Source of the DNA: Cinnamomum chago
Taxonomy: Eukaryota > Streptophyta > Magnoliopsida > Laurales > Lauraceae
Assembly (NCBI GenBank): GCA_038049695.1
Contig: CP142457.1
Span: forward strand, 63,298,501 to 63,362,500
Length of the DNA: 64,000 nt
Reading direction: 5' to 3'
In this document: piece by piece, positions 6,926 to 54,855 of the stretch
How the letters are laid out: every line of letters begins with the position of its first letter
Position numbering within the stretch: the stretch's first letter is position 1
Made by a program: the position numbers and the translations under genes
The notes under the pieces: generated by a model
Told to the model about the DNA's origin: nothing
What the model saw: only the letters and a program-made list of their open reading frames with translations
The model's database searches: none

Positions 6926-9900
6926 ATGGGTAAGAACCATCCGAAGATCCTTTTCTCAATCTATGTTTTGTTCCATCTCTTCATTTGATTTCTTTAGAGA
7001 TTTGGATTTCATGTCTAAACGACGATTCTGCCAACATTTCCCGAAATGTTTGTTTTGGTGTTTGAATCAAGACTCCTTTGGGAGATTAAGGTGCTCGCAC
7101 CTTGCCGTTTGGATGATGATCGTAAAATGCCTTGAGGTTCTTTTGCATTTCGGATCTCTTTCTTATTCATTGATGATGCATTGCAATCTTTTCTCTGTTT
7201 CTTCTCTTGTTATATTCTTGGTTTCTCCTTGGAACTTAGGGGCTTACAAGTACGTATCGGAGCTATGGAGGAAGAAGCAAAGTGATGTAATGCGCTTCTT
7301 GCAGAGGGTTCGTTGCTGGGAGTACCGTCAACACCCTGCCATAGTTCGTGTCACTCATCCAACACGGCCCGATAAGGCTCGCCGCCTTGGTTACAAGGCG
7401 AAACAGGTAATCTGTTTTGTTTCAGTTCATGTTCTCTGACTGTGTAATTAATATTTCATTTTAGATGCTGATTTGCTGCTGTTGAACGCTGTTGTTTGAA
7501 GATCTCAATGCTTAATGTCTTCAGTTGAGAATATCCCATGGTTGTAATCCATGGGAACTGCAAAAAAGAAACTTTTTAATGTTTTTTTTTTTTTTAATTT
7601 ATTTGGTGTGATTATATTCTTGAGTTGATCATTCACCAGTTCATTTAATCTTGTCCTATTTTATAATGAATGCTGTGACTGTAACTTGTTGAGTATGATT
7701 TGGTAATTTGTACCTCGGCTCTGTTTAAGTGTTGGATCAGCAATAAACCGAAAGTGGAAAAAGGATCAGAGATGTATTCTGTGTCTAGTCCACAAATAAT
7801 AACCACTTGACCAATCCAACCTAGAAACATTGCAAAAATAAAAATTAAGCCACAATGATTGGATCAAAGCCTGCCATCTGTTTTTACCAATAAAATTGCC
7901 TCTTGGCTTGAGAATGTTAGAAAAGATCAAATTTATGTCTACGTTTAAATATCACATCTCTCATGATAAAAAGAAAAAGACGAGAGAAACCATCCTTAAA
8001 TGGTACATACCCTCTTTTCTTCACCCGCTTAATTGCATTCATTGAGTTCCCTTCTATGATCAAGCCATCTGCAAATGTCTCTATAAAGACTTCATTGTTT
8101 GGCGAATGGCTTGGATCTTTGTTTCATTTGACTCCGACAAACCCTGTGAACCTTGGAAAGAAAGCAATAACTCTCCTGCATTGTTTTTCAAGACTCCCAC
8201 AATGCCAACAGCTCTCAGTTTTTATCCAACAGGACCATCAGCACTAAATCTTAACCATCCCAGTTCCTATACATGCCAACAAATCTTTCTTTGTTTTCTT
8301 GTATGTCCTTCCCTCATTGTAGTGTCCCAGTTATTAATAATATTTGTAGAAGTCATACCTTTTAACTCTTTCTTCGTGGCCACCCAATGAGCTACTGTTA
8401 CCTCAATAAGCTTATAGGCCTTATCTTCTTGTCTTTCCTTTTGATTATGATTGTTCCTCTCCTTCCATATACATATGTCATTCTTGAATCACCATTTTTC
8501 GATTATATTTTACCCTTGTTGAAATGGACCAGAACCCCATAAAAATACAATCTTCAGCTTCTTGTGCTTCACCCATGAAATTCCAAAAAGAATGTCAATT
8601 TGGACCATATATTTCATGCATAATTACATTGAACCAAAAAAAGATCATTGCTCTCATCTCCCACATGATGTGAAGGACATGTGGTGGAGGCATTAGGTGG
8701 GATACATTCCATTCTTCTGAGATTCTCGTTGGTAAGCACCTTCCTGCAACCACTGTCCAGCGAAAGGGCACCTTGGAGGAACCAAGCAAGACTATAAAAC
8801 TGAACTGGGATGGGAAAGAGAAGGGGGAGAACTGAGGGCTGAGAATAAATTGATAGGTCAATTTGTCAACTATCAAATCTACCCAGAATGGCTTATCGAG
8901 AACCCTTTATTGGATGGGCCAATGCTCAAGACTTGCAAGAACTGGTTGTGAATTTCTACGATTATTCTATCTTTATATATATAGGAACATTGCTTCAACA
9001 ATAATTGTACTGCCCAGGAGAATGTTATAGAATTGCTAGGATTATTTACCTGTTGAACAACATTTTGTTTGTGCACCGATCAGTTATTTGTAGCCTTGAT
9101 GACAGTCAATAATCCCTGCTGTATGTGTATGCTTTCGAGTCTCTGGATAGTTAGCCAAGCATAACTCTTTTGTGGCCAAAATTTGGATTAAAAGTTTTCT
9201 TTCACACCTTTCAGTTCTAAAACCTGAAACATGTCAGATAATGATTTGGGTTTTGGGATGTGCTAGGCAGGTAGGTGACTTTTCTTCAACACATTTCTGG
9301 TGTTCCATGCAACCACAAACACTTGGTGCAATACATGATTAAAATGGATTTGGCTTTTGATAATTTAGGTTTCTATTGTAAACACTGTCTTAATAGTGTG
9401 CATAAATCATAACTGCTGATTACTAATTGTAGGCTCAACTTAATAGTTCTCATTTACAATTCAATGGTTTTATTGTCACCAAAGTTTTGAAAACTGAACT
9501 GGAGCTTGGTTACTGGGTTTGGATGGTTTGGTCTATAATGGTTCAACAGTTTGTTTTATTGGGCTTACTTTGACACCATTTATTCAAAAAAGTTAAAGAA
9601 TGAAACCAACCAAATCGTAGATACACACTATTTGGCTGATCTGTGTTTGGTCAAATGGCTCAAACCCCACAATGGATAACTGTTATGCAAAGAAGAGTCA
9701 TGCTTTTGTAAAAGTCTGAAGTTTTGACTCTTGTTTACTATGCATATAAGGAATGATCTATTCTTTATTTTCGGCAAAGATTAAAAGAGTACTTAAATTA
9801 TTAAGCGAATCAACACCTAGTGTCAAACTTTTGTATATGTTTGAAGTTTTGACTCTTGTTTACTATGCATATGAGGAATGTTCTATTCTTTATTTTCGGC

Positions 9901-13525: not shown

Positions 13526-16500
13526 ATGGAGAATAACACTGTAAACACTACCATGATCAAATTGAACCATACAAATTGGTTAATTTAGAAGCCTAAGATG
13601 GAGGATATCCTCTATTGCAAATACCTCTATGATCTCATTGAGGGGGATAGTGCCCGACAAAAAGAGATGTCTGATCTAAATTGGAAAAAGATGCATAGAA
13701 AGACTATTGGTCACATTAGACAGTGGGTGGATAATAGCATATTTCATCACGTGTCTTATGAAACCAATGCGAGAACTCTTTGAAAAAAGTTAGAAGAAAG
13801 ATATGAGAAGAAAACTGTTATGAACAAAACTTTTCTCATTAGAAAGCTTGTGAATATGAAATTCAAGGAGGGTGGTAAAATTAATGAGCACATAAATGAA
13901 TTCCAATGCATTGTAAATGAATTAGCCACAATGAAGATGGTCCTTGATGATGAGATGCAAGTTTTATTGCTTCTATGTTCTTTGCCAGATACATGAGAGA
14001 CATTGGTTATTTTCGTGAGCAACTCTCATCCAGATGGTGTGTTATCAATGAGTCAGGTTACTAGCAGCTTGTTAAATAAAGAAACAAGAAGAAAAACTAC
14101 AGGGACAAATAATGCACAGGCCTTCATTACGGAGAAAAGTGGGAGGAGTAAGAGTAAGGGACCAAAGGGGGGTCGTGGCAAGTCTATAGGTGGATCACAG
14201 ACTAAGAAAAAGTCTGAAAAATGCTTTCATTGTGGCAAGTAGAGTCACATTGAGAAGAATTGCTTTGCCTTTAAGAAAAAGAAAGAAGCCAACAATGAGC
14301 AAAAGAATGACACTAACACTACAACTACTTTGAATAATGAAGTAGTGGTACTAGCCATTGAAGATGAAGAGTGTTTGAGTGTTGTAGATGATCAGGTTGA
14401 GTGGGTTGTTGACACAGCAGCATCCTACCATGCTACTCCTTCGAAGGAGATGTTCACAACGTACAAAGCAGGGGACTTTGGCACTGTGAAGATGGGCAAC
14501 ACAAGTCATTCGGATATTGTTGGGATCGGTGGTGCCTGCATTAAAACCGATATTGGTTATACAATGACGCTGAAAGATGTGCGGCATATTCCTGTTCTGC
14601 GGTTGAATCTGATTTCTGGAACTTCATTGGACCGTGCAAGTTATGAGAGTTACTTCGAAAATGGCAGGTGAAAACTCACTAAAGGGTCTCTTATTGTTGC
14701 GAAAGGGAAAGCATGTAATACGCTGTACAAGACACATGTGAAGCTATGCAAAGGTGTGTTGAATGTTGTTGAAGACAGATCCTCTCCAAATCTGTGGCAC
14801 AAGTGACTGGGACATATGAGTGAGAAAAAACTGCAGTTATTGGCAAAGAAAAATCGAATTCAATACTCCAAATGTACATCCCTTGACCCTTGTGATTATT
14901 GTTTGTTTGGTAAACAACACAGGGTATCTTTCTCTAAAACATCAACGATAAAATATAATGTGTTGGATTTGGTATATTCTGATGTTTGTGGTCCCATGGA
15001 GGTAAAGTCATTGGGTGACAATAAGTTTTTTGTCACATTTAAAAATGATGCATCCAGAAAAGTCTGGATTTATGTGCTGAAATCGAAGGATCAGGTGTTC
15101 CAGGTATTTCATCAGTTTCATGTCATGGTTGAAAGTGAAATAGGAAAGCTCTTGAAATGTCTCCGCACAGATAATGGTGGAGAGTATACATCTAACCAAT
15201 TTAAAGGCTATTGCTCAAAGCATGATATTCGACATAAAAGAACAGTTCCTGGTACTCCACAACACAATGGTGTGGAAGAGAGAATGAACCACACTATTCT
15301 TGAAAGGATGAGATGCATGATTAGAGTGGCACAGCTACACAAGTCATTTTGGGGTGAAGCTGTCCTAACTGCCGTTTACCTGATTAACAGGTCTCCTTCA
15401 GTTCCAAAGGATTTTGACATTCCGGAGAGAAAATGGACAGGTAAAGTTATTTTATATTCTCATTTGAAGGTGTTTGGGTGCAAGGCTTTTGCACATGTAC
15501 CAAAGGAGCAGCGTTCAAAGCTGGATGATAAGGCAGTATGTTGCATTTTCCTTGGCTATGGTGGAGCTGAGTTTGGTTACAGATTATGGGATTCAGAGAA
15601 GAGGAAAATTATTAGAAGTAGGGATGTGGTGTTTCATGAAGACCAGTTCTTTGGAGATATTGAGGAGGCTGAAAAATCTAAAGAAGTTGTTGATGGAGTA
15701 GTTGATCTCACACCGACTTCTTCTCCAGTGCAGACTACAGGTGGAGAAGGTGGACAAAATGATCCGGATCATGATGAGGCGCAGGGGTTGCCAGATGAAC
15801 AGGGTGTTGAGCAGGGGGAGCAGTCTCCTCAGTTAGAAGCCACAGAACCTCAGGTTAGGATGTCTATTCGAGAGCGTCAACCATCAATAAGATATCCTGC
15901 GACAGATTATATTTTGCTTAATGATGAGGGGGAGCCAGAGAGCTACTCAGAAGCAAAAACTCATGCAGATAAAGATGAATAGATGAAGGCTATGTAGGAT
16001 GAGATGAGTTCTTTGAAAAAGAACAATACTTATGAGCTGGTGAAACTTCCAAAAGGCAGAAAGGTTTTAAAGAACAAATGGGTGTTCAAGCTGAAAAGAG
16101 ATGACAGTAGAAAACTGATAAAGCACAAGGCACGGCTAGTGGTTAAAGGTTTTGCGCAGACGAAGGGTATTGACTTCGATAAAATCTTTTCTTCAGGTTT
16201 AAAGATGATTTCTATCAGAGTTGTCTTGGATCTAGTCGCCAGCATGGACTTTGAGCTTGAACAGATGGATGTGAAGACTGCATTTCTTCATTGTGATCTG
16301 AAAGAAGAGATCTACATGACTCAGCCGGAGGGGTTTGAGGTAGAAGGAAAAGAACAGATGATTTGCAGGTTGAAAAAAAGTCTTTACGGGCTGAAACAAG
16401 CGCCGAGGTAATGGTAAAATAAGTTTGATTCATTCATGGTGAGTCATGGGTACCGGAGGATAGCTGCAGATCACTGTGTTTATATTTGTAAATTTGAAAA

Positions 16501-17489
16501 TGGCAAATTTATCATCCTTCTTTTATATGTAAATGATATGTTGATAGTTGAACATGATAGTAAAATGATTGACAAGCTGAAAATGGATATGTCAAATACT
16601 TTATTTGCATGAAAGACTTGGGACCCGCACGACAGATTTTTGGAATGTAAATACGTCGTGACAGGAATACCAAGAAGCTGTGATTGTCACAGGAGAAATA
16701 TGTTGAACGGGTGCTAACAAAGTTCAACATGAAAGATGCTAAGCCAGTTAGCATGCCTTTAGTCAATCACTTCAAGCTCAGTAAGAGATTATGTCCTACT
16801 ACAGATGAAGAAAATGAACGGATGATTTCTGTTCCATACTCCTCAGCAGTTGGGAGTCTTATGTATGCCATGGTGTGTACACAGTCAGACATTGCTCATG
16901 CAGTGGATTTAGTGAGTAGATTTCTTTCTAACCCTGGGAAAGAGCATTGGGAAGCAATGAAGTGGATCTTCAGATACCTAAGAGGTATATCAGATTTTTG
17001 TTTGTGTTTCAGATGTTCAAAACCAGTACTTGAAGGCTTTACAGATACTGATTTTACAGGCGATCTTGATCGTCGGTTGTCTACTTCTGGGTACTTATTT
17101 ACTTTTGCAGGGGGAGTTATTTCTTGGCAGTCTGAGTTGCAGAAGTGTACAGCATTGCCTACAACCGAAGCAGAATACATAGCTGCTAATGAAGTAGGGA
17201 AGGAGATGATTTAGTTGAAATCTTTTTTTCGAGAACTGGATTTGAAACAAGAGAGTATGTAGTCTACTGTGATAGTCAGAGTGTTATGGATCTTAACAAG
17301 AACGCTACATATCATGCCCGCACGAAGCATGTTGATGTGAGATATCATTGGATTCGTGAGGTTATCTAAAAGAATCTTATGAAGTTGGAAAAGATTCATG
17401 CTAACAAGAATCCCTCGTACATGATGACTAAGGTCGTATCTAAGGAAAAGCTGAAGCTGTGTTCAGAGTTGGCAGGAATGGACTCCTAG
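13526..17489 (+). pseudogene. Copia gag-pol polyprotein, inactivated
   Basis: From the ATG at 13526 the polyprotein stays in one frame to about 16.6 kb. In order come gag; a zinc knuckle CFHCGK-stop-SHIEKNC (14219-14260); protease WVVDTAASYHAT (14402); integrase with CDYC and D,D,E in YSDVCGP, RTDNGGEY and GVEERMN (14960-15290); reverse transcriptase (16004-16600); and RNase H with a SELAGMDS end. In-frame stops interrupt it, among them TAG 13586, TGA 13994, TAG 14240, TGA 14669, TGA 14805 and TAG 15980. Frame shifts occur near 16605 and 17258. The catalytic YVDD box reads YVND (16526-16537). Most stops look like TGG, CAG or CGA codons altered by C-to-T or G-to-A change. It is a dead copy. 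Confidence 0.93.
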
Positions 17490-34594: not shown

Positions 34595-37500
34595 ATGAAC
34601 AATACCACTCCCTCTTTTCTTCTCTTCTTCTTCTTCTTCTTCTCCTTCCTCTTTTTTAACTTGAAAACCACTCTGGTTTTCTCCTCTACCCTCCCAATAC
34701 CACTTCGCTCTCTTCTCTCTATCAAAACCTCCCTTAGAGACCCTCTCTCTTCACTCAATGACTGGGACGCTAACCTCCCCAGACCGGGTTTCCCAGACCC
34801 GGTCTGGTGCGCCTGGACCGGAGTCACGTGCGACCCGAAAACCTATCAGATTACCTCCCTCGACCTCTCTCGGAAGAACCTCTCCGGCTACATTACCCCG
34901 GAGCTCCGCCTCCTCTCCCACCTGAACCACCTCAATATCAGCGGCAACGCCTTCGACGGCCCGCTCCAGACCGCCATCTTCGACCTCCCGTCCCTCAGAA
35001 CCCTCGACATCAGCCACAACAATTTCAATTCCACCTTCCCGCCCGGCATCTCCAAGCTCCGCTTCCTCACCCTCTTCAACGCCTACAGCAACAGCTTCAC
35101 CGGCCCTCTTCCTCCTGGCTTCGCCCGCCTCCGCTACCTCGAGCATCTCAACCTCGGCGGAAGCTTCTTCGATGGCCCCATCCCTCCGAGTTACGCCGGC
35201 TTGACTCGCCTCACCTTCCTCCATCTCTCCGGAAACCTTCTTCGCGGACCGATTCCCGCAGAGTTGAGTCTCATGACTCAGCTCGAGCACGTAGAGATCG
35301 GGTACAATGTCTTTGAAGGCGGCGTTCCTTACCAACTCGGTCTCTTGTCGAATCTCAAGTATCTCGATATCGCGACTGCGAATCTCTCCGGCTCTCTCCC
35401 GAGCGAACTCGGCAACCTGACTCAGCTGGAATCGCTGTTTCTGTTCAACAACCAGTTGTCGGGGGAAATACCGGAGCGGTTTTCGGATCTCAGCTCGCTC
35501 AAAGTGCTGGATTTGTCGGATAATAGCCTGTTGGGTAGGATCCCGTTACGATTTTCGGATTTGAGAGAGCTGACGTTCCTGAACCTGATGAGCAACGATC
35601 TGACGGGTGAGATTCCTCCAGGGATCGGTGAGCTCCCGAACCTAGAGATGCTGCTGCTGTGGAACAACTCACTCAACGGAAGCTTGCCTTGGAAGCTCGG
35701 CTCCAACGCCAAGCTTCAGAAGCTGGACGTGTCTTCGAATTCTCTCTCGGGTCCGATCCCTCCGAGCCTCTGCTTCGGAAACAATCTCAACAAGCTCATC
35801 CTCTTCTCCAACAGCTTCGACTCCGAGCTGCCTCCCACTCTCGCCAACTGCACGTCCCTCTGGCGCCTCAGGATCGAAGCCAACAAGATCAGCGGCTCCA
35901 TTCCGTTCGGCTTCGGACTCTTGCCTAACCTGACCTACATGGATCTCAGCGAGAACAACTTCTCTGGTGAAATTCCGAAGGACCTCGGCAATGCGCCCAG
36001 GCTGCAGTACCTCAATATCTCTGAAAATCCGCTTGCGAGCGAGCTGCCCAACAACATCTGGAGCGCGCCGAGCCTCCAGATCTTCTCCGCCAGCTTCTGC
36101 AAATTGAAGGGGATGATTCCCAACTTCACGGGATGCGAAAGCATCTATAAGATCGAGATAGAAGGGAATTCGCTAACCGGAAGCGTTCCATTTGACGTCG
36201 GACATTGCCAGAAGCTCATCAACTTCAAGATCGGAAAGAACGATCTCACCGGAATTATTCCATGGGAGCTGGCGACGCTGCCGTCGATCCAAGAAATCGA
36301 TCTCTCCCACAATTCCTTCACCGGATCGATCCCCTCCGCCTTCGACAACTGCCGGAATCTGGAGAACTTCAACGTCTCCTACAACAAGCTCACCGGTCCG
36401 GTTCCCTCCTCAGGCGCGATCTTCAAGATCCTCCATCCATCCGCCTTCACTGGCAATGCCGGCCTCTGCGGCGAGGTTCTGCAGCGACCCTGCGTGTCGG
36501 AAGCCGGCGCAGGAGATGCCGACATCCGGCAGCAGCCGAAGAAGTCGGCAGGCGCGATCGTGTGGGTGATGGCGGGGGCGTTCGGAATCGGACTCTTCCT
36601 TCTGATCGCCGGAAGCCGGTGCTTCCACGCAAGGTATGGGAAGAGATTCGGGGAGGAGGCGAAGCCCGGGCCGTGGAAGCTAACGGCGTTCCAGCGGCTG
36701 AATTTCACGGCGGAGGACGTTCTAGAATGTTTGTCAATGAGCGAGAAGATCATCGGAATGGGATCGACGGGGACGGTGTACAAAGCGGAGATGCCAGGTG
36801 GGGAGATCATAGCCGTTAAGAAGCTGTGGGGGAAGCAGAAGGAGACATTTATAGTGAGAAGAAAGAAAGGAGGGGTTTTGGCAGAGGTGGATGTGCTTGG
36901 GAACGTGAGGCACAGGAATATAGTGAGGCTGTTGGGGTGCTGCAGCAACAACGAGAGCACGCTGCTGCTGTACGAGTACATGCCGAATGGGAGCTTGGAT
37001 GACCTGCTGCACAAGAAGAACAAGGGGGCCCACCTGGTGGCTGACTGGCTGACCAGGTATAAGATAGCTGTGGGGGTGGCGCAAGGGATCTGCTACCTGC
37101 ACCATGACTGTGATCCTGTGATAGTGCACCGGGATTTGAAGCCGAGTAACATACTGTTGGATGCTGAGATGGAGGCCAGGGTTGCTGACTTTGGTGTCGC
37201 CAAGCTCATACAGACCGATGAGTCCATGTCTGTTATTGCTGGGTCCTATGGCTACATTGCACCAGGTCAGTTTCCACTAGCTACTGCTTGCTTGGGTCTT
37301 GTTTTTTTTTCTTCTCTAGTTCTGCATTGCTAGTTGCTACGGATAGGATTGTGACACGTGACGTAGGAAGACAGATTAGATAATTCGCTACGTACAACAG
37401 ATGTTGTCGTTTCAAGGTCCTTTTGTCTTTTCAATAGATAAATTCAGCGGGCACGGATTTGGCTTGGGTCAATCATGCTATAAATGTGGTGGTGGGCTCA

Positions 37501-38732
37501 TGGTTGATTGAGGACTTTGGGTATCAATGTACTTGAGTGAATCGTGTAGCAGAATGATCCGAATCGTTGTTCATTCGGACCACCAACTTCACCATCTCTT
37601 CCTTAAATTTAGGATTCTAGTAACATATGTAGTTGAGGTTACGACTGAGCAGAGTCTGATTTAAGAGAAACTATCCCATACTTGATGTGGTTACGGTGCT
37701 GACGCTAGGTTAATACACAATGTGGTGTTCACAAGTAGGCTGATCAAAGCTACTTTTATCATTGTCGTACCAATTTGCACAGTTGGGTGGATCTGGTGCT
37801 AAATTTACATGTCATTAGTCTTTCTATATTTCTCACATTATCAATTCAATGATCCATCATCATGGTTCTAGTAAATTGGTGCCAAATACGTGCCAATGTC
37901 TATACACATTGGAGGAATTTTATAATGAGTTAGTGGGATCGCTCTGTTCCCACTATGGCACCTAATGTGACTCCAAGTTTGTATGGCTTTGGTGACCCAC
38001 CAAGTCAAACATAAACATTACTCTGATGACATAGATGATTGCCTCATGTGCAGTTAGTAGGTCGAGATAGATTGACTGGCATTTCATTTAAGTTGCTTTG
38101 CCAGACTCCTGGGATTTGAATATTATAGCATGCTGGGGATTTAAACCAGAGTTGGCGCGCTTTGTCAGATTTTCATAAGTTACAATGAGAGAATTCGTAA
38201 TTTATATATAGCAAAGGCTCATGTGCCACCACCCCTACTTTTACATTTTAATAGTACTTTATACAATTCTGCAAGCCTGAAATTTGTGTGTGCTGGTTAA
38301 TTGATTACAGAGTATGCGTACACGCTGCAAGTCGATGAAAAGAGTGACATATACAGCTTTGGTGTTGTGCTAATGGAGATACTGAGTGGGAAGAGATCAG
38401 TGGACTCCGAATTCGGGGACGGGAACAGCATCGTCGACTGGGTTCGGTCCAAGATCAAGAGCAAGGATGGTGTGTCTGAGGTTCTGGACAAGAATGCAGG
38501 CGCCTCGTGTGCATTGGTGAGGGAGGAGATGATGCTGGTGCTGAGAGTGGCATTGCTCTGCACGAGCAGGTGCCCCGCAGATCGACCATCGATGAGGGAC
38601 GTGGTCTCCATGCTACAGGAAGCCAAGCCCAAGAGAAAGATGCAGGGAGGTGTAGGGGTTGGACCTGGAAGTGGTGGTAATAGTGGAGGAGGAGCCAGTC
38701 CTTTGATGCAGAAGCCAGCAATGGACTGTTAA
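34595..38732 (+). CDS. PXY: PXY/TDR-like LRR receptor kinase (TDIF/CLE41-44 receptor)
   Basis: CDS is join(34595..37265, 38311..38732), 1030 residues; Arabidopsis PXY has 1041. Order: hydrophobic signal peptide (1 to ~32), LRR N-cap with WCAWTGVTCD, about 20 LRRs (90-630), LRR C-cap (GLCGEVLQRPC), membrane span (~652-676, AGAIVWVMAGAFGIG), and a kinase. The kinase has GMGSTGTVYKA, AVKKLW, VHRDLKPSN (~844) and DFGVAKL (~866), so it is an active-type RD kinase. The intron splits the APE Glu codon, a position usual for this family. In plants PXY binds the TDIF peptide at the plasma membrane to keep cambial cells dividing and orient vascular divisions. LRR signatures (FNAYSNSFTGPLP, NIWSAPSLQIFSASF) and the kinase (SMSEKIIGMGSTGTVYKAEM) favour PXY over its BAM/CLV1 relatives. 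It ends in a Gly-rich tail (GPGSGGNSGGG). No defect seen. Confidence 0.93.
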
Positions 38733-44841: not shown

Positions 44842-45221
44842 TCAATATAGAAGTAGATGAAAAGCCAAAGAGGCAGCAGACCTACGTCTGTTTGGCGTAG
44901 GAGGGAGAAGATCGACCTGCTTGGTCCGAAACATCATGTATCCAACGGGTAGGACGACTCCGATCATCATGATCGCGGCCCCCATCAAGTACCTCAGTGG
45001 GCCAGGCGGCTCCACCTCCAGAAGTCTCTTCACCTGATTCAATACACACAGATATCTCTCAGAAGTAGTGCTAAGATCTGGAAATGTAAAAAAACCCTAA
45101 CCCTAGAGATTAACATTGGATCTGAGGTAATCGAAGCTGAAGGAGAGAATAACATTGGATCACGTGCGTGAAAGTAGAGATTTTTACATTGCTGTTTGTG
45201 TGGGTTTGGACTTACAGGCAT
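44842..45221 (-). CDS. Small single-span membrane protein, plant-conserved, function unknown
   Basis: Minus-strand gene with exon 1 at 45216-45221 (ATGCCT, then the strong donor GTAAGT) and exon 2 at 44842-45033. The joined protein begins MPVKRLLEVEPPGPLRY and has one membrane span (YLMGAAIMMIGVVLPVGYMM). An unspliced start (MNQVKRL at 45042) is the alternative. I recall plant homologues of about 60 residues with this core; their role is unknown to me. In those the tail ends SSSYSKQT-like. Here a +1 frame reads RSSPSYAKQT-stop while the open frame reads VDLLPPTPNRRR and continues to 44842, suggesting a 1-nt loss (or read error) near 44917. A (GAA)n repeat lies directly before the ATG. Confidence 0.65.
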
Positions 45222-45420
45222 CGTTTCCTTCTTCTTCTTCTTCTTCTTCAGGCGCCTCCGTTAGATCTATGGAAGAAGGACCTATAGCTTCACGTTCTAC
45301 TCACTTGTTGGATCTCGCTCCATTGAAAGGGAAGGGAGTACGGATCATATGTGGTTCAATTAAAATTCGATTCAATTTTTTTACTCTTATTGATTGACCT
45401 ATGGTTTCATTAAAAAAATA

Positions 45421-45526
45421 GGGAAAAAAGCACTATACCTACCTGGACTTTGGCCGTTTTGCAGAGTGATCCCTGAACTTTGGTATTTGTGACTAAACCT
45501 ACCTGTAGTTTTAGTTGGCATGCAAA
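45421..45526 (+). repeat. MULE left terminal inverted repeat
   Basis: Starts GGGAAAAAAGCACTATACCT. It pairs with 54199-54304. The first 25 bp are identical to the other end and the remainder carries scattered substitutions. Confidence 0.92.
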
Positions 45527-45691
45527 ATGGACGGATTCTGTTAGTATTAACAGTGTAGGTCGTATAAAATCTGTTTGGTGCATACTGGCGCCAAGTTACT
45601 CTCCCAAAAAGGCATATTTGCCCCTGAATCAGCCTATAAAACATTGGAAGTGCACCAGACATGTTCTTAGTGAAAATTTTTCTTTCCAGCC

Positions 45692-46179
45692 ATGGATTCC
45701 TCTCAAAACTCTCAAAACTCCTGCACCCACTGTTCTCGTGGCCAATACTCTCAACTTGATGGTGAAATTCGTTACTGTCACTGCAGGCATAGGGCTGCTT
45801 TGAGAACTTCTCGAACACAGCGCAACATGGGGAGGAGGTTTCTTGGCTGTGCTCTATATGGGGTTATGTTGTCAACAATTTGATTGTTCTTCTTAATGTA
45901 TGGTCAATAATGCTATTATTAATGTTATTTTGTTTCAATTTATTTTTTCAGATCCAGCCAGCGTGTGGATTTTTTGAATGGGTTGATGGAGAAAATGATC
46001 AGGTACAAAAGCTATTGGATAAGATTGATGTGCTGGAGAAGGAAATGAAGACAGTTTGTCGAAGAGAAAAATGTTACCTACGTGTATTGCTGTGGACTTG
46101 GGCTGGAATTGTGTTTTTTTTGTTCATGTGCTACCTAGTTGTGGCTTGGTTCCCTGTAGATGGGTTAGAATTACCATAA
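45692..46179 (+). CDS. GRF-type zinc-finger protein with coiled coil and membrane span, carried by the MULE
   Basis: CDS is join(45692..45862, 45952..46179), 132 residues, intact. The GRF finger spans the intron: YCHCRHRAALRTSRT, NMGRRFLGC, then after splicing ACGFFEWVDGE. A short coiled coil follows (VQKLLDKIDVLEKEMKTVCR), then one hydrophobic span (VLLWTWAGIVFFLFMCYLVV) near the end. This architecture matches small plant proteins often named At4g04775-like. GRF fingers in other proteins bind single-stranded DNA; the role of this membrane-tethered form is unknown. It begins 271 bp inside the left TIR and converges on the transposase, so the TIR probably holds its promoter. A role as a second MULE protein is inferred from position. 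Confidence 0.85.
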
Positions 46180-46667
46180 TTATATGTATCAGTTGGAATA
46201 TTTTAATGAAAATGGGTTTGTGAAGTTTGCTTGTCCATGAATGCTTTGTTCACTCCTTATTTTGCTCTGAACTTTAATCAACATGCAATAAGAAAAGCAT
46301 CATCATCCAAACACTCAATCCAGACAATTTAAAAGGTCATCTATGCTGCTCCAATCCATCATCATCATCCTAACAGTCAATCCAAACAATAAAAAATAGT
46401 CATCTATGCTGCTCCAAACAGACATCATCATTCAATATGCCAATTCAAACAATAAAAAATGGTCATTTATGCTAAACTCCAAACAGCCATCATCATCCAA
46501 ACAGTTTTTCGAAACAGTCAACACCAAACTACATCAGGTTGTCTTAAAACACCATCTCCCATAAACAAATTTACAACATCATCATGACAAAGTTTTTTAA
46601 AACAGAACCAAAATAAAATCTGTTAAACATCATCCAAAAGTTTTAAAATAGAATCAACATAACATCA

Positions 46668-49600
46668 TCAGATTGTGCTGCCTTTCCCTGCTCCAATCCT
46701 CCCTCTACCTCTGGGTGTTGATGCAGACCTCACATCTTGTAACTTTCCTCTATCAGTTGTATTACTTGCTGATGAAAGTGGCTGTGAAGCTGGCAACGGC
46801 TGAGAAAAGGATTGTCTGACTCTCCCCTGATTAATCAAGATTTTCAATACAGTAGTTAGTAAATGCATGCATATAATCTAGTTAGAAGAAAAAGTATAAA
46901 ACATGGGTGAAAGTATTATACCCTATGTGCTGGCATGGGCTGTGATGCTGGGTGGGAAGCTGGCATGGGCTGAGAAGGTCGCATGGGCTGTGATGCTGCT
47001 GATGTGAATATTAAAATAACCGCAAGCGTACGGATCGTTCGCAATACGGGTCGAACTCAGGGAGGCCAATGCTTTAGATTACTTTCTTTTAATTAAGGCA
47101 AAAGTGAACAAAAAATGATGACAGGTGATCTAAACCTAATCAAACACAACCAAACAGCAACTAAAATTAATTAAAACAACTAAACGCAACTACGGACCTA
47201 ACGTGACTATTTACGCAAAATTACGAAAATACCCCTAACAACTAAATTGCTGAAAAATAAATTTAATGAGATCTAATGACGAAGAGAACTCTCAAGAATG
47301 GATCCACCAATGAAATTAGGGGCTGATTTTAAGAAAACCAAATTTTAGATACGTAGATCTAGATGGACCTTTGGTCAATGAATTATTCAAACCATATACG
47401 AGACAAAACCCATGAATAGTTTCTCATCTTTCTCCTTGTATTTTAACACCAAAAATTCATGGGTAGCAAGGTATCATTATGGATAAAAAAAAATCATAAA
47501 GCATATAATCCTCCTAAAGTAGTTTGAGGCATGTCATGCAATATGTAGATTTCATTCATGATAATCCCTCCACATACACAATGCAATTAAATTCAACTAT
47601 GGTTTCCTTTAATCATCCCTTAATTCAATGGCTTCACCATCCTCAAGAGAGGAGAATTTAGCTAGCCATCACAAGAGAAGACATAAAATAAATAAATAAA
47701 AACATGGAAAAGAAAATAAAATAAAAGGAGAAAAGTTAGATATACCTGATGTTGAAGAAGGTGATTTTGTTTTCTACCATTAGTCTGTGAGCGCGCCTAT
47801 GCTTGCTTGATGCTTGGTCTTCAATGGAGTATTTAGAAATTACAAGGCTTTGAAACTAACTAAATTAATTAATTACAAACCTTGAATTGAAGTTACAAAC
47901 CCATAAAAAAAACATAAAAGAAAGCAATGGATTAAAACTATGGAATAAAATTGAAGCTTGCTTGAAGAAGAACTTTATTGCTTGAATGGAGAAGACACCA
48001 TTAATGGAGAAGTGGAGGACATCCAAAGGAGAAGAAAAAAAACTTGTAAAAGGACAAATATTTGAGAGAGAATGAGCGTGTCCGAGAGAGAGAGACGTCC
48101 TCCTCTTTATGAGTTTCTAAGAGAGAAAAAAAAGGAAAAAAAACCGTGAGATCTCTTGCTTGGCAACCACACCCACATCTTTCCAACTTTTTCTTCCTTT
48201 CTTTTGACTTTCCAAAGAAAGAAAAAAAATATCTTCAACTTCTTCTTTCCCTTTTACTTGCACGTTGGAGAGAGACCAAGAAAGATAAAAAAAATTCCTT
48301 CTATGTATTTCTTTCCTTGGCTTCTTTGACCACTTGTGATGAGGTGTGCTAGAGACAAATTAGCTCCTTCCCTTATCTCTTCTCTTTCCAATAGGTGTGT
48401 TAGATTAGAAACAATCCCAAAGAAAAAGGAAGATGACGTGTGGCCTCCTTGTGGTTGGAAAACATGTGGGCCCTCCATCCTTGGTGAGTGGAGAAAATCA
48501 AGGAAAATAATTTCTTTTTTTTCTCCTTTGCTTGGTGAAATGGTGAGACGTTTCTCTCTATATTTTTTCCTTCTTTTGCTTCAATAAAAATGTGGGCCTT
48601 GTGCTTATGTGGTCCCCTTCTTGAACAAAATGACACCTCTTCTTGTTGCAAGTGTAGGATTGCATTTCAGTCATTGATCACAAATGTATTCTTTGGTGCT
48701 TAAATAAACCCTTGGAAAGATTGTGGACTGGCCCGTTTTGTGCTGGATCTCAATTCTGGCCCATTATTCTTTCATGGCCCAAAACGATAATTGCTTGTAT
48801 GACTGCTTCTAGGAATGTGTACTTGAAATTTGTCATGTCAATTAAGCCTGAATTTCAGCTCTGAACACAGCCACGAAAAAAAAATATTGGGCAGCTTCAC
48901 GTGTAAATTTGAAGATACAGCTCTTGATAACCCAAAATATCATAAAGTATCCAAAAGAACCTAAAACCTGAAAAAGACAGAAGAATACCCAAGTAGCTTT
49001 GTACAATGTGAGTAAAATGCATGCTTATGGCCCTAAGATTTCACACATAAATGTGCTCATCAGCTGCCATGGGCTGTGATGAACCTGTCATGGGCTGTGA
49101 TGCAGAATGAAATAGTCTTGAATTTGGATGCACTGGTCCCTTGCAAGATCTGGCATTATGGCCTGTTTTCAAGCATCTAGCACAAGTCATTGTTCTGTTC
49201 CTTCTGGAAACTCTACTGGAACTATGTGCCTCATCCGCTTCCCTCCTCCTCAACTTCCTTGGCCTACCTGCAGGTCTTCTATACAATGGAGGAGCAACTG
49301 GTTCCATTCCACTTTCTGTCCAATCATGCATGCCAGGTACAGCATGTATCATACTACTATATGCATTCAAATACATCTATTTGTTGTAGCATTCATGAAT
49401 ATAATCTTCAGGCCTTCCTTAATTCATGTATATACATGCTATGGCATGCTTACAAGGTATCCCAGTCAGATCCCACATTCTGCATAAACATGTTCTACTC
49501 TCAATGTTCACAACATAAGTTTTTGTAAAACAGTCAACCTCAAACTCACCTCTGCCTGACCAATTGGGAAAACAATGTCTGTTGTCATGCTTGTTTTTTT

Positions 49601-51662
49601 CCAACTTCTCCAATATCGCAGGACATATTGTCCCATCATATTTAGTCATTCCTTTTAACTTCACTTGAGTTCTAATCAGTTTCCTCCTGACACACTCAAG
49701 CAAACCAACAATTGGTTTCTCCCTAACTTCAAGTATGTAACTGTTGAAAGATTCACATAGGTTATTTGTTAATGCATCACATTTGGCCCTTGTAGTAAAA
49801 TGAGATCTGGCCCACCTGTTTGGATTAGCAGATATCAGCCAATTATATGCAGCCTGGTCCATCTCTTTCACCCTCTGCATATGACTATCAAACTCTCTGG
49901 GTGATCCACATGATGCTGCAGCCCACATAGCATATTTCAATAATTTGCCTCTAAACAGTTTTTTGAAGTTATCATACATATGTCTCAGACAGTGCCTGAT
50001 TTCAGCAGTAGAAACTACTATCTCAAAAGCTGCGTCAAGCCCTTTCTGTCTATCAGACAAAAAAATCCAGCCCATGTCACCCCCATTTCCAATGTCATCA
50101 ATTAATGATTTCAAAAACCAAGTCCATGAGTCCAAATTTTCAGCCTCTACAACAGCCATTGCAATTGGGAACATATTATCATTCTCATCTCTACCAACTG
50201 CAGCCAACACTTGTCCACCATAACTACCTTTGAGGAAGCACCCGTCTAGACCAATTATGGGTCTACATCCACCAACGAACCCTACCTTTTGTGCCTCATA
50301 ACAGACATACAGTCTCTGAAAATTTGGAATTCTATCCATGTGAGGTCTTTGTGTCACCACAAATATACTTGTGTTGGGATTGTACTTCTGGACAGTGACA
50401 CAATAGTCCATCAATCTAGTGTATTGGATTCTAATATCTCCAGAGATGTTATCTGATGCCTTCCTCTTCGCTCGATACAATTTATCCTTCGACAAATTAA
50501 CATTTAGTTCTCTTCTCAGCTCTTTTTGCATTGCAGGAATTGACCATTTCGGATTGTCACTCATCCTCTGCTGGTATTTAGCAGCTATATAGCTGGAAGT
50601 TACCAAGTGATTTTCAAACCTCATACCACATGCATGTTTGAGTTTGAATGTCTTAATTTGAAATGTCATCTCACCCTGCATGGGTGATGCATGAATCCTA
50701 AACCCACAATCATATTTACAAACAGCCGTGATTCTCTTGTTCTCATTTTTCAGATATTTAATGTCATAGCCTTGCCTTACAGTCCATTCAACAAGTGCTT
50801 GTCTGAAAACTTGTGGACTTGAAAATATCATACCCAACTTCAGTTCAGGATTCTCCATATCAGTCAGCTCATTAAACTCAGGCCATTTAGACCTGTTGTT
50901 CTCATCAGATGAGCTGCACAATGAGTGAAGATCATCCCCATGCTCATCATCTGCAACCCAATTCTCATCAACTGGTACTTGTTGTTTTCCTTTATGCACC
51001 TCTTCCACATTCTCAGAAGATCCTCTGAAGATATTCTCATCTTCTGGCTTCTCAATATCCTCATGTAGCTCTGGTGGCTCATCAGGATCTATAGGATTCT
51101 CTTCACTTTCAACCTCACTGTCCTCATCATGACCAGCACTTGTTTGAGGATGCTGATGAACATTAGGGTCATCATCACTGCCTTCATCAACATCAGCTGC
51201 ATCCTCAACATCTGCAGCATAGTAATCCTCACAATGAAGTTTCCTACTAATTGATGCTACTTCTGTTGCAGGTAGCTGCTTCAAGGGACCTTCGGTGTCA
51301 ATATTTTGCATTAAGATATTCCCCTTAGGTGACACGACCATCAAAGGTTCATGTCCCCTCTCTATATAAACAGTCAACACCTTACTGTCCTTATAATGTT
51401 TTAATAGAATAAATACATCCCTGTCTGATTCAATTCGCCTCAAACCATCATCAAAATCCATTCCTGACACCTTAAAATACATTGAACTGTTCCCTGGGTA
51501 CCCTAATTCTATCATACAATCCCTGAACTTAAAAAATGATGCTTTGTCAATATCAAATTCTCTGACTTCATGTACCATACCCCCAATGTATACACTATTT
51601 GGTGGGTCTGTAAAATAACCACCATGGTGGAATTCAATTGTAACTTCATCAAACATCTGCAT
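46668..51662 (-). pseudogene. MuDR-type MULE transposase, inactivated
   Basis: Main open frame 51662-49419 (747 codons). The real start may be the Met at 51656 after an intron acceptor (ATGCAG). Order: PB1-like N-terminus (1-110), acidic linker (150-260), MuDR DNA-binding domain (~265-340), then the DDE core with D in IIGLDGC (~472), D in FLSDRQKG (~535) and E in LCESFN (~635). A SWIM finger (CLCRMWDLTGIPCKHA, ~735) follows. The frame continues through TAA (49419-49421) and TAG (49377-49379) into 49376-49041 with a CCHC knuckle (CARCLKTGHNARSC) and SQPM repeats. A ~2-kb insertion (47003-49045) then splits it. The tail resumes at 47002-46922 and 46826-46668 with a 95-bp intron and an Arg/Gly-rich end. 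A leader exon may end at 53988. Two stops plus the insertion make it non-functional. Confidence 0.93.
47003..49045 (-). mobile_element. Insertion in the transposase tail, probable solo LTR (~2 kb)
   Basis: On the minus strand it begins TGTGAAATCTTAGGGCC and ends TTTAATATTCACA, matching TGTGAA/TTCACA ends. Near its end is GTTCGACCCGTATTGCGAAC, a phrase resembling Gypsy LTR ends. The interior has no gene. The SQPM-repeat coding sequence of the transposase resumes on both sides, which proves an insertion. No 5-bp target duplication could be matched (GCTGA and CATAA), so exact ends and class are uncertain. Confidence 0.6.
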
Positions 51663-54198
51663 GTAGAACCTTATACCAGTTTAAAAAAAAAACAAAATAT
51701 GTAATTTCTTAATCTAACATATGCAGGGGGGGCTTTTATAGCCCTTCATATAAAAATATGTTTTTGTTGTCTATAGAGAAAGATGAGGCCAAATACAACA
51801 GAACAGAGAATCTCAGTGCACTTAATCAATTGCATAGGCCTAATCTTAGAACTAGATATCCCAATTTGAGGAAAATATTACACTACGTAAGCCACAATGA
51901 TGTAACAGTGGCACAGACATTAGAAACATCAAAAGAATAAACAGAAAGAAGTACTACTCAGTGAAATCAGCAGCGGCAAAAGTAACAGAACCCACAACAA
52001 CAATATTGAGAATTGGGTTCCTCTGTAAATCATTCTATGTGCCTCATCTTTTGATACAGATGACTAAATTCAAACCTCCTAGACATCATGTCCTTGCTGA
52101 ATTCTCATAAGTAAAATGAAATAACAATAAATCTTTTGTGTGACAAGGCAGTTTGACATAGCAGAACTCATTTCTCTGTTGTTAGTTGCTTCATGCTCTA
52201 TTGTTAGTTTATTTGGATGACCAAAAGAAGCGCCCTACATTTGTTTATAGTTGGGAGTGGGCCCAGGTTAGCAAATGGTCTAGTCAAAGCGTGTATATAT
52301 CCTACCAGAGCTACAACAATTCGTTTATCATTAATTAAATATATGAAAGATTCATTCCATTGTATACAATTGAGAAGGAATAATTTGAGAAGATTCATCA
52401 ACAGAGGCTACATATCAATAAGGATACGAGTACAACCATGAAATTATGGGTTCACTCTTCGCTTTCCTACAGGAAAGAACAGAATGTAGTGAATAGATAA
52501 AAACATGAACATGCATACAAATGACTGTTATATGAATTTGGATTGAGTTCTGGAATGAAGCTTGTAATTTTGGTCAATGGCTTTTTTAATGTTACATTCA
52601 CTAGGTCAGTTACCTTCTCTGGATAATTGGGAGCATTTGAGCTCATTTTCTTTGTTTTTTCTCATTTGTGAAGGTCGGGAGCACTATAGGCTCATTTTCT
52701 CAAGTTATTGTTGTTGATGAAAATTGTTATATTTGTCAATGTAATATATGATTCATATACCACCAGGTTCTAAAGCTTTTGGTCTGATGAACAACATCTC
52801 TTGTCTTGGTGCCTTTTTCTAATCAATGTGTTACTTGATTCTATTAACTTTTATTAGCAATTGTTTTATAAAACAGTGAATGAAGATTTTATTCATAATG
52901 ACTGTATGGAGTTGGATATGGTATTTCTTTGCTTGCTAAGTGTATCTACAATGGCTACTATGTGATTGTTGGTCTACTTGAAATTTATAATCACATCAAC
53001 AAATTAGACTCATATCTTAACAGACTACTAGTTCAAGTGAAGTCATCTTGCAATCTTTGTAGAAAATGCCCAACAAAGCGAATTGGATTTTTGGCAGAAC
53101 AGATTATTACAAAAAAGAGTATCTTACAATATTAGTAGAAAATGCCATGGTACTTTGTCTGGATGTTTTGGCAGAACACATGATTACACATAAGAGTGTC
53201 TTATAAACTTGCTGTTGTCTATATAACATTTCATCAATATTTTAAATCTAAGTGAATTCAGATTCTAAAGGGCCAAATTATTACAGTAATTCAAAGTTTC
53301 CAGAATATGATCAAAATCCTAAACTACTAACGATCCCTCAGAATCCAATCCAGAGTAGGAAACCAAGTGCCATACCACTTTGGAATCCATATTTCAAGAA
53401 ACTATGATACACAACATAGAAAACAGAATCTATGAAATCATTTCAATATACAAAGGGGGTTTTAGTAAAAAAAAATTCTACTAAAAATTTCCCTTCTCAA
53501 ATCTAAAGGTTTTCCCCGAGCAAAACATCAATTTCAACTGGTTTGTATCGTCGTCTACAAATACAAGCTTTAGTGATCATTGCTGATCAACAACTTGCAA
53601 ACGGTAATATTGGAGAAATGAATGGGCCCCACAAAATGACATCTTTGATCTCTCTTTCCTTGTCTTCTTCTTTTTCAACCTTCAACCCCACATACAATAC
53701 CTAATCATCGAGACCCGCCTCAAATATAATAACAGTACAGACAAAGTCTATCCAACAAGGGTTGACTGTGGTCCCCTCCATGTGTAACAGCCACCATGGC
53801 TAACCCACAAAAGTAGCAGACAAGTGGGGTTTCTATTCCACCAACATTCAAACAGAAACAGATTTTTTCAAGAGGGGACCATTTTCGACAGCGAAAGGTC
53901 CTACCTCTGAAACCGTATCAGACATCACCATATCAGACAAAAAAGTTCAAAATCTTAAACCCATGGTCATCGGGTATGAGATCATACCTCTGAAACCGCT
54001 GATGGACCTTCGGTGTGGATCTATTGTTCTTCTTGAGAGATCTGATGCATGCAAGGAAGGAGGAGAAGATTTCGCCTAAAATCGCTAGAACCCTAACCGC
54101 AAGTGAAAAGGGGAAAAACCAGAAAAAATCACTAACAGTAAAGCGCATATATCAAGGGTAAATTTGTCATTTACTAAATTCCGTCACAGCAGTTAGTA
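51663..54198 (-). other. MULE interior upstream of the transposase (probable leader exon and intron)
   Basis: No coding sequence recognised in 2.5 kb. On the minus strand, just inside the right TIR, a leader could run to a donor CAGAG/GTATG at 53988. The acceptor before the transposase ATG lies at about 51657. The phrase ACCTCTGAAACCG occurs twice (53905 and 53986). Confidence 0.4.
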
Positions 54199-54304
54199 TT
54201 TGCATGTCAACCCAAAGTACAGGTAGGTTTAGTCACAAATACTAAAGTACATGGGTCACTCTGCAAAACGACCAAAGTACAGGTAGGTATAGTGCTTTTT
54301 TCCC
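54199..54304 (-). repeat. MULE right terminal inverted repeat
   Basis: Reverse complement starts GGGAAAAAAGCACTATACCT. It carries three AAAGTACA words in tandem arrangement and is presumably the transposase promoter region. Confidence 0.92.
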
Positions 54305-54855
54305 TAAAAAATATGATTAATGAATATGCATGATAATATGTTAATCATGATTTAAATTAAAATGTCATTTTTAGTATGTGATCAACTCCTATTAAAATAA
54401 AATTTATTGATGCCCATCTTTGGATATAAGGTGAATTGAAATAAAGTGAGGTGAAGCATCAAATCAAGAGAATAAATATAAGAGATTATGATGATATTTT
54501 ATTTTTAGTTGTTTGATAGAAATTTATTTTTGAATTTTTGTGTAAAAGGAGGATATATTTTTTGTCATTTAGAGAGAATGGTTTTTTTTTTAATGAAAAT
54601 TTGAAGATATGTACTTTTGATGTAACCCATTGTCTTCTTTTTTTATGTGAATAATGGAAGCTTTACTTCACTTTTAACTTTACTAGTTAATTGCCAAACA
54701 CGCTATGAGGCTGTTTATTTTGAGTGCCTCTAATTCTTTTTTAATTAATGAGATCTACCATAGAGTTGCCAAAATGTTAAGACACGCGAATGAATTAAGA
54801 GAGGGAAGTACACTTTATTAATCCTACAAATGATTTATTATTGCCATTATATTAG
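54305..54855. other. AT-rich spacer
   Basis: No gene or defined repeat seen between the MULE and the SINE. Confidence 0.5.

What the first reader, a model, noticed from the sequence alone, without database searches (positions are those of the whole stretch)
45421..54304. A MULE with two convergent genes: MuDR transposase and a membrane-tethered GRF zinc-finger protein
Matching 106-bp TIRs and an 8/9 target duplication enclose a transposase and an unrelated, still intact, intron-containing zf-GRF/coiled-coil/membrane protein. Each is read inward from its own TIR, as mudrA and mudrB are in maize MuDR. GRF fingers elsewhere bind single-stranded DNA, so a role in transposition, repair of the excision gap or escape from host control is imaginable. 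Small plant zf-GRF membrane proteins (At4g04775-like) are numerous and poorly understood; many could be MULE cargo rather than host genes.
Basis: partly seen in the sequence, partly recalled or inferred. Interest (0 to 1): 0.8.

Follow-up and report, generated by a model that had tools for sequence, protein, structure and literature searches.

The report
Defective plant MULE carrying zinc-finger membrane gene
This is a now-broken, plant-type jumping gene of the Mutator kind that carries, besides its own transposase gene, an intact-looking second gene for a small zinc-finger protein with a likely membrane anchor; whether that gene helps the element or is just a passenger could not be tested here.

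Summary
The anatomy is real. The ends at 45421 and 54304 are 106-bp terminal inverted repeats (96/106 identical), with an A-rich 8/9 target duplication. Between them lie a MuDR/MULE transposase gene (minus strand) and, convergent with it, a predicted two-exon gene for a 132-aa GRF zinc-finger protein with a C-terminal hydrophobic segment. This copy therefore looks defective. The open GRF frame is weak evidence of selection: at the transposase's stop rate, about 72% of such genes would still be open. Each TIR holds three copies of a 13-bp motif spaced exactly 30 bp, a candidate transposase-binding array. Two-gene MULEs with an antisense second gene are a known kind (mudrB, plant-mobile-domain genes, barley Abermu ORFR). 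A GRF second gene did not turn up in eight literature searches made for it in an open-licence library. No plant genome collection was available, so recurrence, co-descent and dN/dS were not tested. Accessory gene and one-off capture both remain open.

The parts
45412..45420 (.). left copy of the putative 9-bp target duplication (AAAAAAATA)
   Evidence: 8/9 match to 54305-54313; read, frequency control
45421..45526 (+). left terminal inverted repeat, 106 bp; 13-bp motif at TIR positions 21, 51, 81 (12, 11 and 10 of 13 matches)
45692..45862 (+). GRF gene exon 1 (57 codons)
45863..45951 (+). GRF gene intron, GT-AG, 89 bp (predicted)
45952..46179 (+). GRF gene exon 2 with stop; end of zinc finger, linker, hydrophobic C-terminal segment (protein residues about 102-126)
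46668..46826 (-). probable last exon of the transposase tail (ends RGRGRIGAGKGSTI, stop)
   Evidence: read; splice sites inferred by eye
46922..46999 (-). transposase tail (SQPM repeats) on the far side of the solo LTR, including one 5-bp duplication; splice site at 46922 inferred by eye
47000..49062 (.). solo LTR, 2063 bp, TGATG...CATCA, 5-bp duplication GCTGC (46995-46999 and 49063-49067), inserted in the transposase reading frame
49063..49376 (-). transposase segment after the second stop; CxxCxxxGHxxxxC zinc-knuckle-like motif (Pfam zf-CCHC_3 E=0.048, below cut-off)
49377..49421 (-). stretch bounded by two in-frame stops (TAG at 49377-49379, TAA at 49419-49421)
49419..51662 (-). transposase open frame, 747 aa: MuDR DNA-binding domain, MULE catalytic domain, SWIM finger
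51663..54198 (-). long stretch between transposase ATG and right TIR; possibly 5' UTR with an intron (inferred)
   Evidence: sequence; repeats
54199..54304 (-). right terminal inverted repeat; 13-bp motif at TIR positions 21, 51, 81 (13, 10 and 13 of 13 matches)
54305..54313 (.). right copy of the putative 9-bp target duplication (TAAAAAATA)

Best explanation
Shown: an 8,884-bp Mutator-like transposon with long TIRs, a MuDR-type transposase gene and a convergent second reading frame for a GRF zinc-finger protein with a C-terminal hydrophobic segment. The transposase of this copy has two nonsense codons and its tail is split by a solo LTR. Inferred: the copy is dead or dying and its host is a plant. 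In the parent element the transposase bound the 3 x 13-bp motif array in each TIR and moved the unit by cut-and-paste. The GRF gene, which starts 165 bp inside the left TIR, was transcribed from that TIR as mudrB is in MuDR. Its product is a tail-anchored protein with the GRF finger facing cytosol or nucleoplasm, which would hold single-stranded nucleic acid or an element-encoded complex at the ER or nuclear envelope. I think it slightly more likely than the best rival that the gene is an inherited second gene of its MULE lineage (accessory or counter-silencing, like mudrB, VANC or antisense PMD genes), not a one-off capture.
For: TIRs and anatomy. Transposase domains; the motifs that I recall as catalytic (GLDG, LSDR, NNLCESFN, CxxH) are all present. 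GRF: Pfam E=1.8e-8 and match to NEIL3 GRF chains 7omk and 7jl5, E about 1e-6. Hydrophobic segment: maximum Kyte-Doolittle mean 2.31 over the 19 residues from residue 108 of 132. The second gene is a complete frame with its intron, lies next to one TIR, and converges on the transposase gene with about 490 bp between. Precedent: Table 1 of PMC6446971 (section 6 read) lists 'PMD in antisense for most of them' for its MUDR group and 'PMD in most, often antisense' for MUDRAVI2. PMC9168764 (passages and sections 16 and 23) describes a convergent ORFR in barley Abermu.
Against: Only one locus was seen, so a single capture explains it about as well. The open GRF frame is expected by chance in about 72% of cases at the transposase's stop rate, a crude figure from two stops. 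No expression, relatives or dN/dS. GRF fingers also occur in ordinary cellular proteins such as NEIL3. A membrane anchor is odd for a transposition helper. Several active MULEs have only a transposase gene (Hop, Os3378, Muta1, Jittery: PMC9168764 passage), as has the putative autonomous AutoMuTAnT (PMC4486113 passage), and rice Abermu without ORFR appears active on data that the authors do not show (PMC9168764 section 23), so second genes can be dispensable.
Confidence: 0.5

Rival explanations
1. One-off capture: this element picked up a complete host GRF-membrane gene at the DNA level (intron kept) and carries it as a passenger without function in transposition.
For: Gene capture by MULEs is well documented (PMC6446971 introduction passage; grapevine paper PMC2528002 passages). 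Only one copy was seen. Intactness needs no selection.
Against: Captured pieces are described as gene fragments, mostly non-functional (PMC2528002 passage). Here the whole coding frame and intron are present, in the position and orientation of a second MULE gene.
Confidence: 0.42
2. The GRF gene is a host gene trapped between two unrelated TIR copies or in a composite of nested elements, so the 8.9-kb unit never moved as one.
For: The target duplication is A-rich and imperfect; TIR identity is only 91%; at least one other element is nested inside.
Against: The TIRs match at both termini, with one transposase and a duplication of the expected length. No other TIR copy was found in the window; other matches were 30 bp or shorter.
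Confidence: 0.08

Closest known systems
maize MuDR (mudrA/mudrB)
   Same: Long TIRs that act as promoters, transposase gene plus a second gene in the opposite orientation (passages of PMC9168764, PMC3276141 and PMC8224964).
   Different: The second gene here encodes a GRF protein. mudrB is reported only from the genus Zea (PMC3276141 passage). The MURB sequence was not compared here. This transposase is broken.
plant MULE groups MUDR / MUDRAVI2 with antisense plant mobile domain (PMD) gene
   Same: Plant MULE with SWIM transposase and a second gene antisense to the transposase (PMC6446971 Table 1).
   Different: The second gene is GRF, not PMD. 'GRF' does not occur in the main text of that paper. 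The transposase was not placed on that paper's tree.
barley Abermu MULE (ORF1, ORF2, convergent ORFR)
   Same: Large element with an opposite-strand extra gene of unknown function (PMC9168764).
   Different: No GRF is mentioned there (0 occurrences). The ORFR sequence was not compared here.
VANDAL elements with VANC anti-silencing gene
   Same: Transposon with extra genes beside a transposase gene (PMC5735166 passages; PMC6446971 passage); VANDAL is one of the MULE groups in PMC6446971 Table 1.
   Different: VANC carries DUF1985 and DUF287, not GRF. VANC targets often form tandem repeats in non-coding parts of the element; here the only regular motif array noted lies inside the TIRs.
small plant GRF-membrane proteins such as At4g04775 (recalled)
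   Same: GRF finger and C-terminal hydrophobic segment.
   Different: That protein was not available for comparison. Placement here is inside a transposon.

Membership tests
Mutator-like element (MULE) | MULE transposase domain with MuDR DNA-binding domain and zinc finger | tested here: met
   PF10551 E=7.4e-14, PF03108 E=2.9e-10, PF04434 SWIM E=8.4e-9, all above cut-off
Mutator-like element (MULE) | long terminal inverted repeats enclosing the transposase | tested here: met
   106 bp, 96/106 identical
Mutator-like element (MULE) | 8-11 bp target site duplication (range from PMC6446971) | tested here: inconclusive
   9-mers match 8/9 but are A-rich
autonomous MULE | intact transposase | tested here: not met
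   two in-frame stops after SWIM and a solo LTR in the tail
MuDR-like two-gene MULE | second gene convergent with the transposase, read from the other TIR | tested here: met
   orientation and position; transcription not tested
MuDR-like two-gene MULE | second gene homologous to mudrB | not tested
   MURB sequence not at hand; the only Pfam match of the protein up to E=1 is GRF
Pack-MULE | non-autonomous element without transposase gene, carrying host gene fragments | tested here: not met
   a transposase gene is present, though broken
GRF zinc-finger protein (PF06839) | GRF-type zinc ribbon with conserved cysteines and FFxW | tested here: met
   34.8 bits against cut-off 25.9; C29, C31, C53, C62 and FFEW present; their role as zinc ligands is recalled
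GRF zinc-finger protein (PF06839) | binding of single-stranded nucleic acid | not testable with these tools
   needs a binding assay; activity of other GRF fingers is recalled
At4g04775-like GRF-membrane family | sequence relationship to that protein family | not testable with these tools
   no plant protein collection held; C-terminal hydrophobic segment found

The most novel reading that the evidence does not exclude
GRF-membrane genes are a recurring second gene of a plant MULE lineage: an element-encoded, membrane-anchored nucleic-acid-binding protein that helps the element move or escape silencing. Many annotated plant GRF genes would then be transposon genes or their domesticated descendants, parallel to the plant mobile domain family.
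Probability: 0.35. Interest if true: 0.7.

Novelty: new variant of a known kind. Interest (0 to 1): 0.42.

Why it matters
If GRF-membrane genes prove to be a standing second gene of MULEs, a plant gene family that I recall as large and poorly understood would be re-read as transposon cargo. That would add another independent type of accessory gene (beside mudrB, VANC and PMD) with a strange membrane anchor. If it is a single capture, it is an ordinary example of a MULE carrying a host gene. The test is simple with plant genomes.

Tried and rejected
Relatives: scans with the transposase and the GRF protein in viral contigs (3 and 27 stretches matched a pattern, none confirmed) and prokaryote genomes (13 and 38 stretches, none confirmed), and a 21-base TIR pattern in viral contigs (0 matches). 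These are not plant collections, so this says nothing about recurrence.

Solved structures: for the transposase, 10 distinct sequences at E 0.077 to 0.67, all taken as chance matches. For the GRF protein, a third match (an MHC chain, E=0.75) was likewise taken as chance.

Literature: ten searches. Eight combined GRF terms or accessions with transposon or MULE terms (6, 7, 15, 16, 17, 19, 39, 40). They listed no paper that, by title and abstract start or by the passages I opened, describes a GRF gene inside a MULE; two had no hits (16, 19). Of the eight distinct papers these listed, I opened passages of six and found no such link; in the paper I did not look up the MULE mention. PMC5413045 and PMC12320393 were seen only as listings. 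The peanut methylome paper names twelve GRF zinc finger genes as differentially methylated between two pod stages (PMC6293580 passage); this fits a repeated family but proves nothing. One search was too broad (766 papers, 25 listed); one of those listed was opened. Of the eight papers, six were opened. The library holds only open-licence papers, so absence there is not absence in print.

Rejected: reading the open GRF frame as evidence of selection; a bacterial promoter scan at the left TIR, which is not suited to a plant and found nothing. A note written gave the exon 1 end as 45865; one search corrects it to 45862.

Full report
Observation. The window has 38% G+C. I take it as plant DNA from its genes (an LRR receptor-like kinase, Copia-type pieces, this MULE); no call named the organism. 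The inverted repeats at 45421-45526 and 54199-54304 match 96 of 106 positions; in steps of ten, the outer 90 bp match 83 of 90, and identity falls to 4-5 of 10 from about 110 bp inward and lower beyond. In 45000-54800 this is the best inverted match, at 150 bits, against a maximum of 37.4 bits in 20 two-base-block shuffles. The 9-mers outside the ends match 8 of 9. They are A-rich: 0.30% of window 9-mers match the left one this well, 0.10% the right one, so the duplication supports the boundaries only moderately.

TIR structure. Each TIR holds three copies of the motif ACCTGTACTTTGG or a variant, at TIR positions 21, 51 and 81: an exact 30-bp spacing in both ends, with 12, 11 and 10 of 13 matches on the left and 13, 10 and 13 on the right. 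At 11 of 13 or better, four of these six copies qualify, and only three other places in the 64-kb window do. I infer an array of binding sites for the transposase; this is not tested.

Transposase. The minus-strand open frame 51662-49419 (747 aa) has the MuDR DNA-binding domain, the MULE domain and a SWIM finger, all above Pfam cut-offs. The motifs that I recall as catalytic (GLDG, LSDR, NNLCESFN, and CxxH between the last two) are present. Shortly after the SWIM finger the frame runs into a stop. Thirteen codons (GRPEDYIHECYNK), which I recognise from memory as transposase sequence, follow, then a second stop, and then the frame continues in the same phase through a zinc-knuckle-like motif that stays below Pfam's cut-off. 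The SQPM-rich tail is interrupted at 47000-49062 by a 2063-bp insertion that begins TGATG, ends CATCA and is flanked by GCTGC on both sides. It has no long direct repeat that could be a pair of LTRs, so I read it as a solo LTR. Joining the flanks shows that the tail was one open frame before the insertion.

GRF gene. On the plus strand, ATG at 45692 lies 165 bp inside the left TIR. Three GT-AG joins keep the frame open: 132, 130 and 124 aa. The 132-aa form gives what I recall as the usual GRF spacing and scores 34.8 bits with Zn_ribbon_GRF against a cut-off of 25.9; the other two were not scored. It also matches the GRF fingers of NEIL3 in solved structures at about 1e-6. No transcript is available. 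Six residues follow it. This is what a tail-anchored membrane protein looks like; the anchor itself is inferred.

Is the intact GRF frame meaningful? The transposase frame, counted over the 747 codons and most of the stretch up to the solo LTR, has two nonsense codons. Scaling by the number of single-base changes that would make a stop gives 0.32 expected stops in the GRF gene and a 72% chance of none. This rests on two stops and is crude, but it means that intactness is no good evidence of selection or of function.

What is known. MULEs with extra genes are established. PMC6446971 (passages and section 6) names mudrB, mutB, vanB and vanC, and lists plant mobile domain genes antisense to the transposase in most elements of its MUDR group and often in MUDRAVI2. 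PMC9168764 (passages and sections 16 and 23) describes barley Abermu with a convergent, fast-evolving ORFR of unclear function; [quoted passage not shown] PMC8616336 (passages) discusses transposon-encoded PMD proteins as a possible counter-silencing strategy. GRF occurs in none of these three main texts. Several active MULEs carry a transposase gene only (PMC9168764 passage). Eight literature searches that combined GRF with MULE, MuDR, Mutator, transposable element or family accessions showed no description of such an element in this open-licence library.

What could not be tested. No whole genome is held for this window and there is no plant collection among the tools. Five scans of non-plant collections confirmed no relative and are uninformative on this point.

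Conclusion. Anatomy: very likely right (my estimate 0.95). GRF as an inherited second gene of this MULE lineage: about even. One-off capture: 0.42. What is new is the kind of second gene, not the two-gene layout. I rate it a new variant of a known kind, of moderate interest, that one genome survey would settle.

Noticed in passing
47000-49062: Solo LTR (TGATG...CATCA, 5-bp duplication GCTGC) nested in the transposase tail of the MULE.
   Followed up: yes
45421-45526 and 54199-54304: Three copies of a 13-bp motif with exact 30-bp spacing in each TIR, about three helical turns apart.
   Followed up: partly
14816-17214: Broken Copia-type retrotransposon pieces: integrase and RVT_2 matches in separate ORFs; a third ORF had no Pfam match.
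   Followed up: no
34595-38732: LRR receptor-like kinase sequence in two ORFs that look like exons of one gene; it resembles TDR/PXY by recall only.
   Followed up: no
6963-7439: Frame matching positions 1-65 of 191 of the ribosomal protein L15e model, possibly one exon or a fragment.
   Followed up: no
51663-54198: 2.5 kb between transposase ATG and right TIR with two pairs of imperfect direct repeats spaced 76-77 bp near 53045-53206; either a long 5' UTR intron or inserted sequence.
   Followed up: partly
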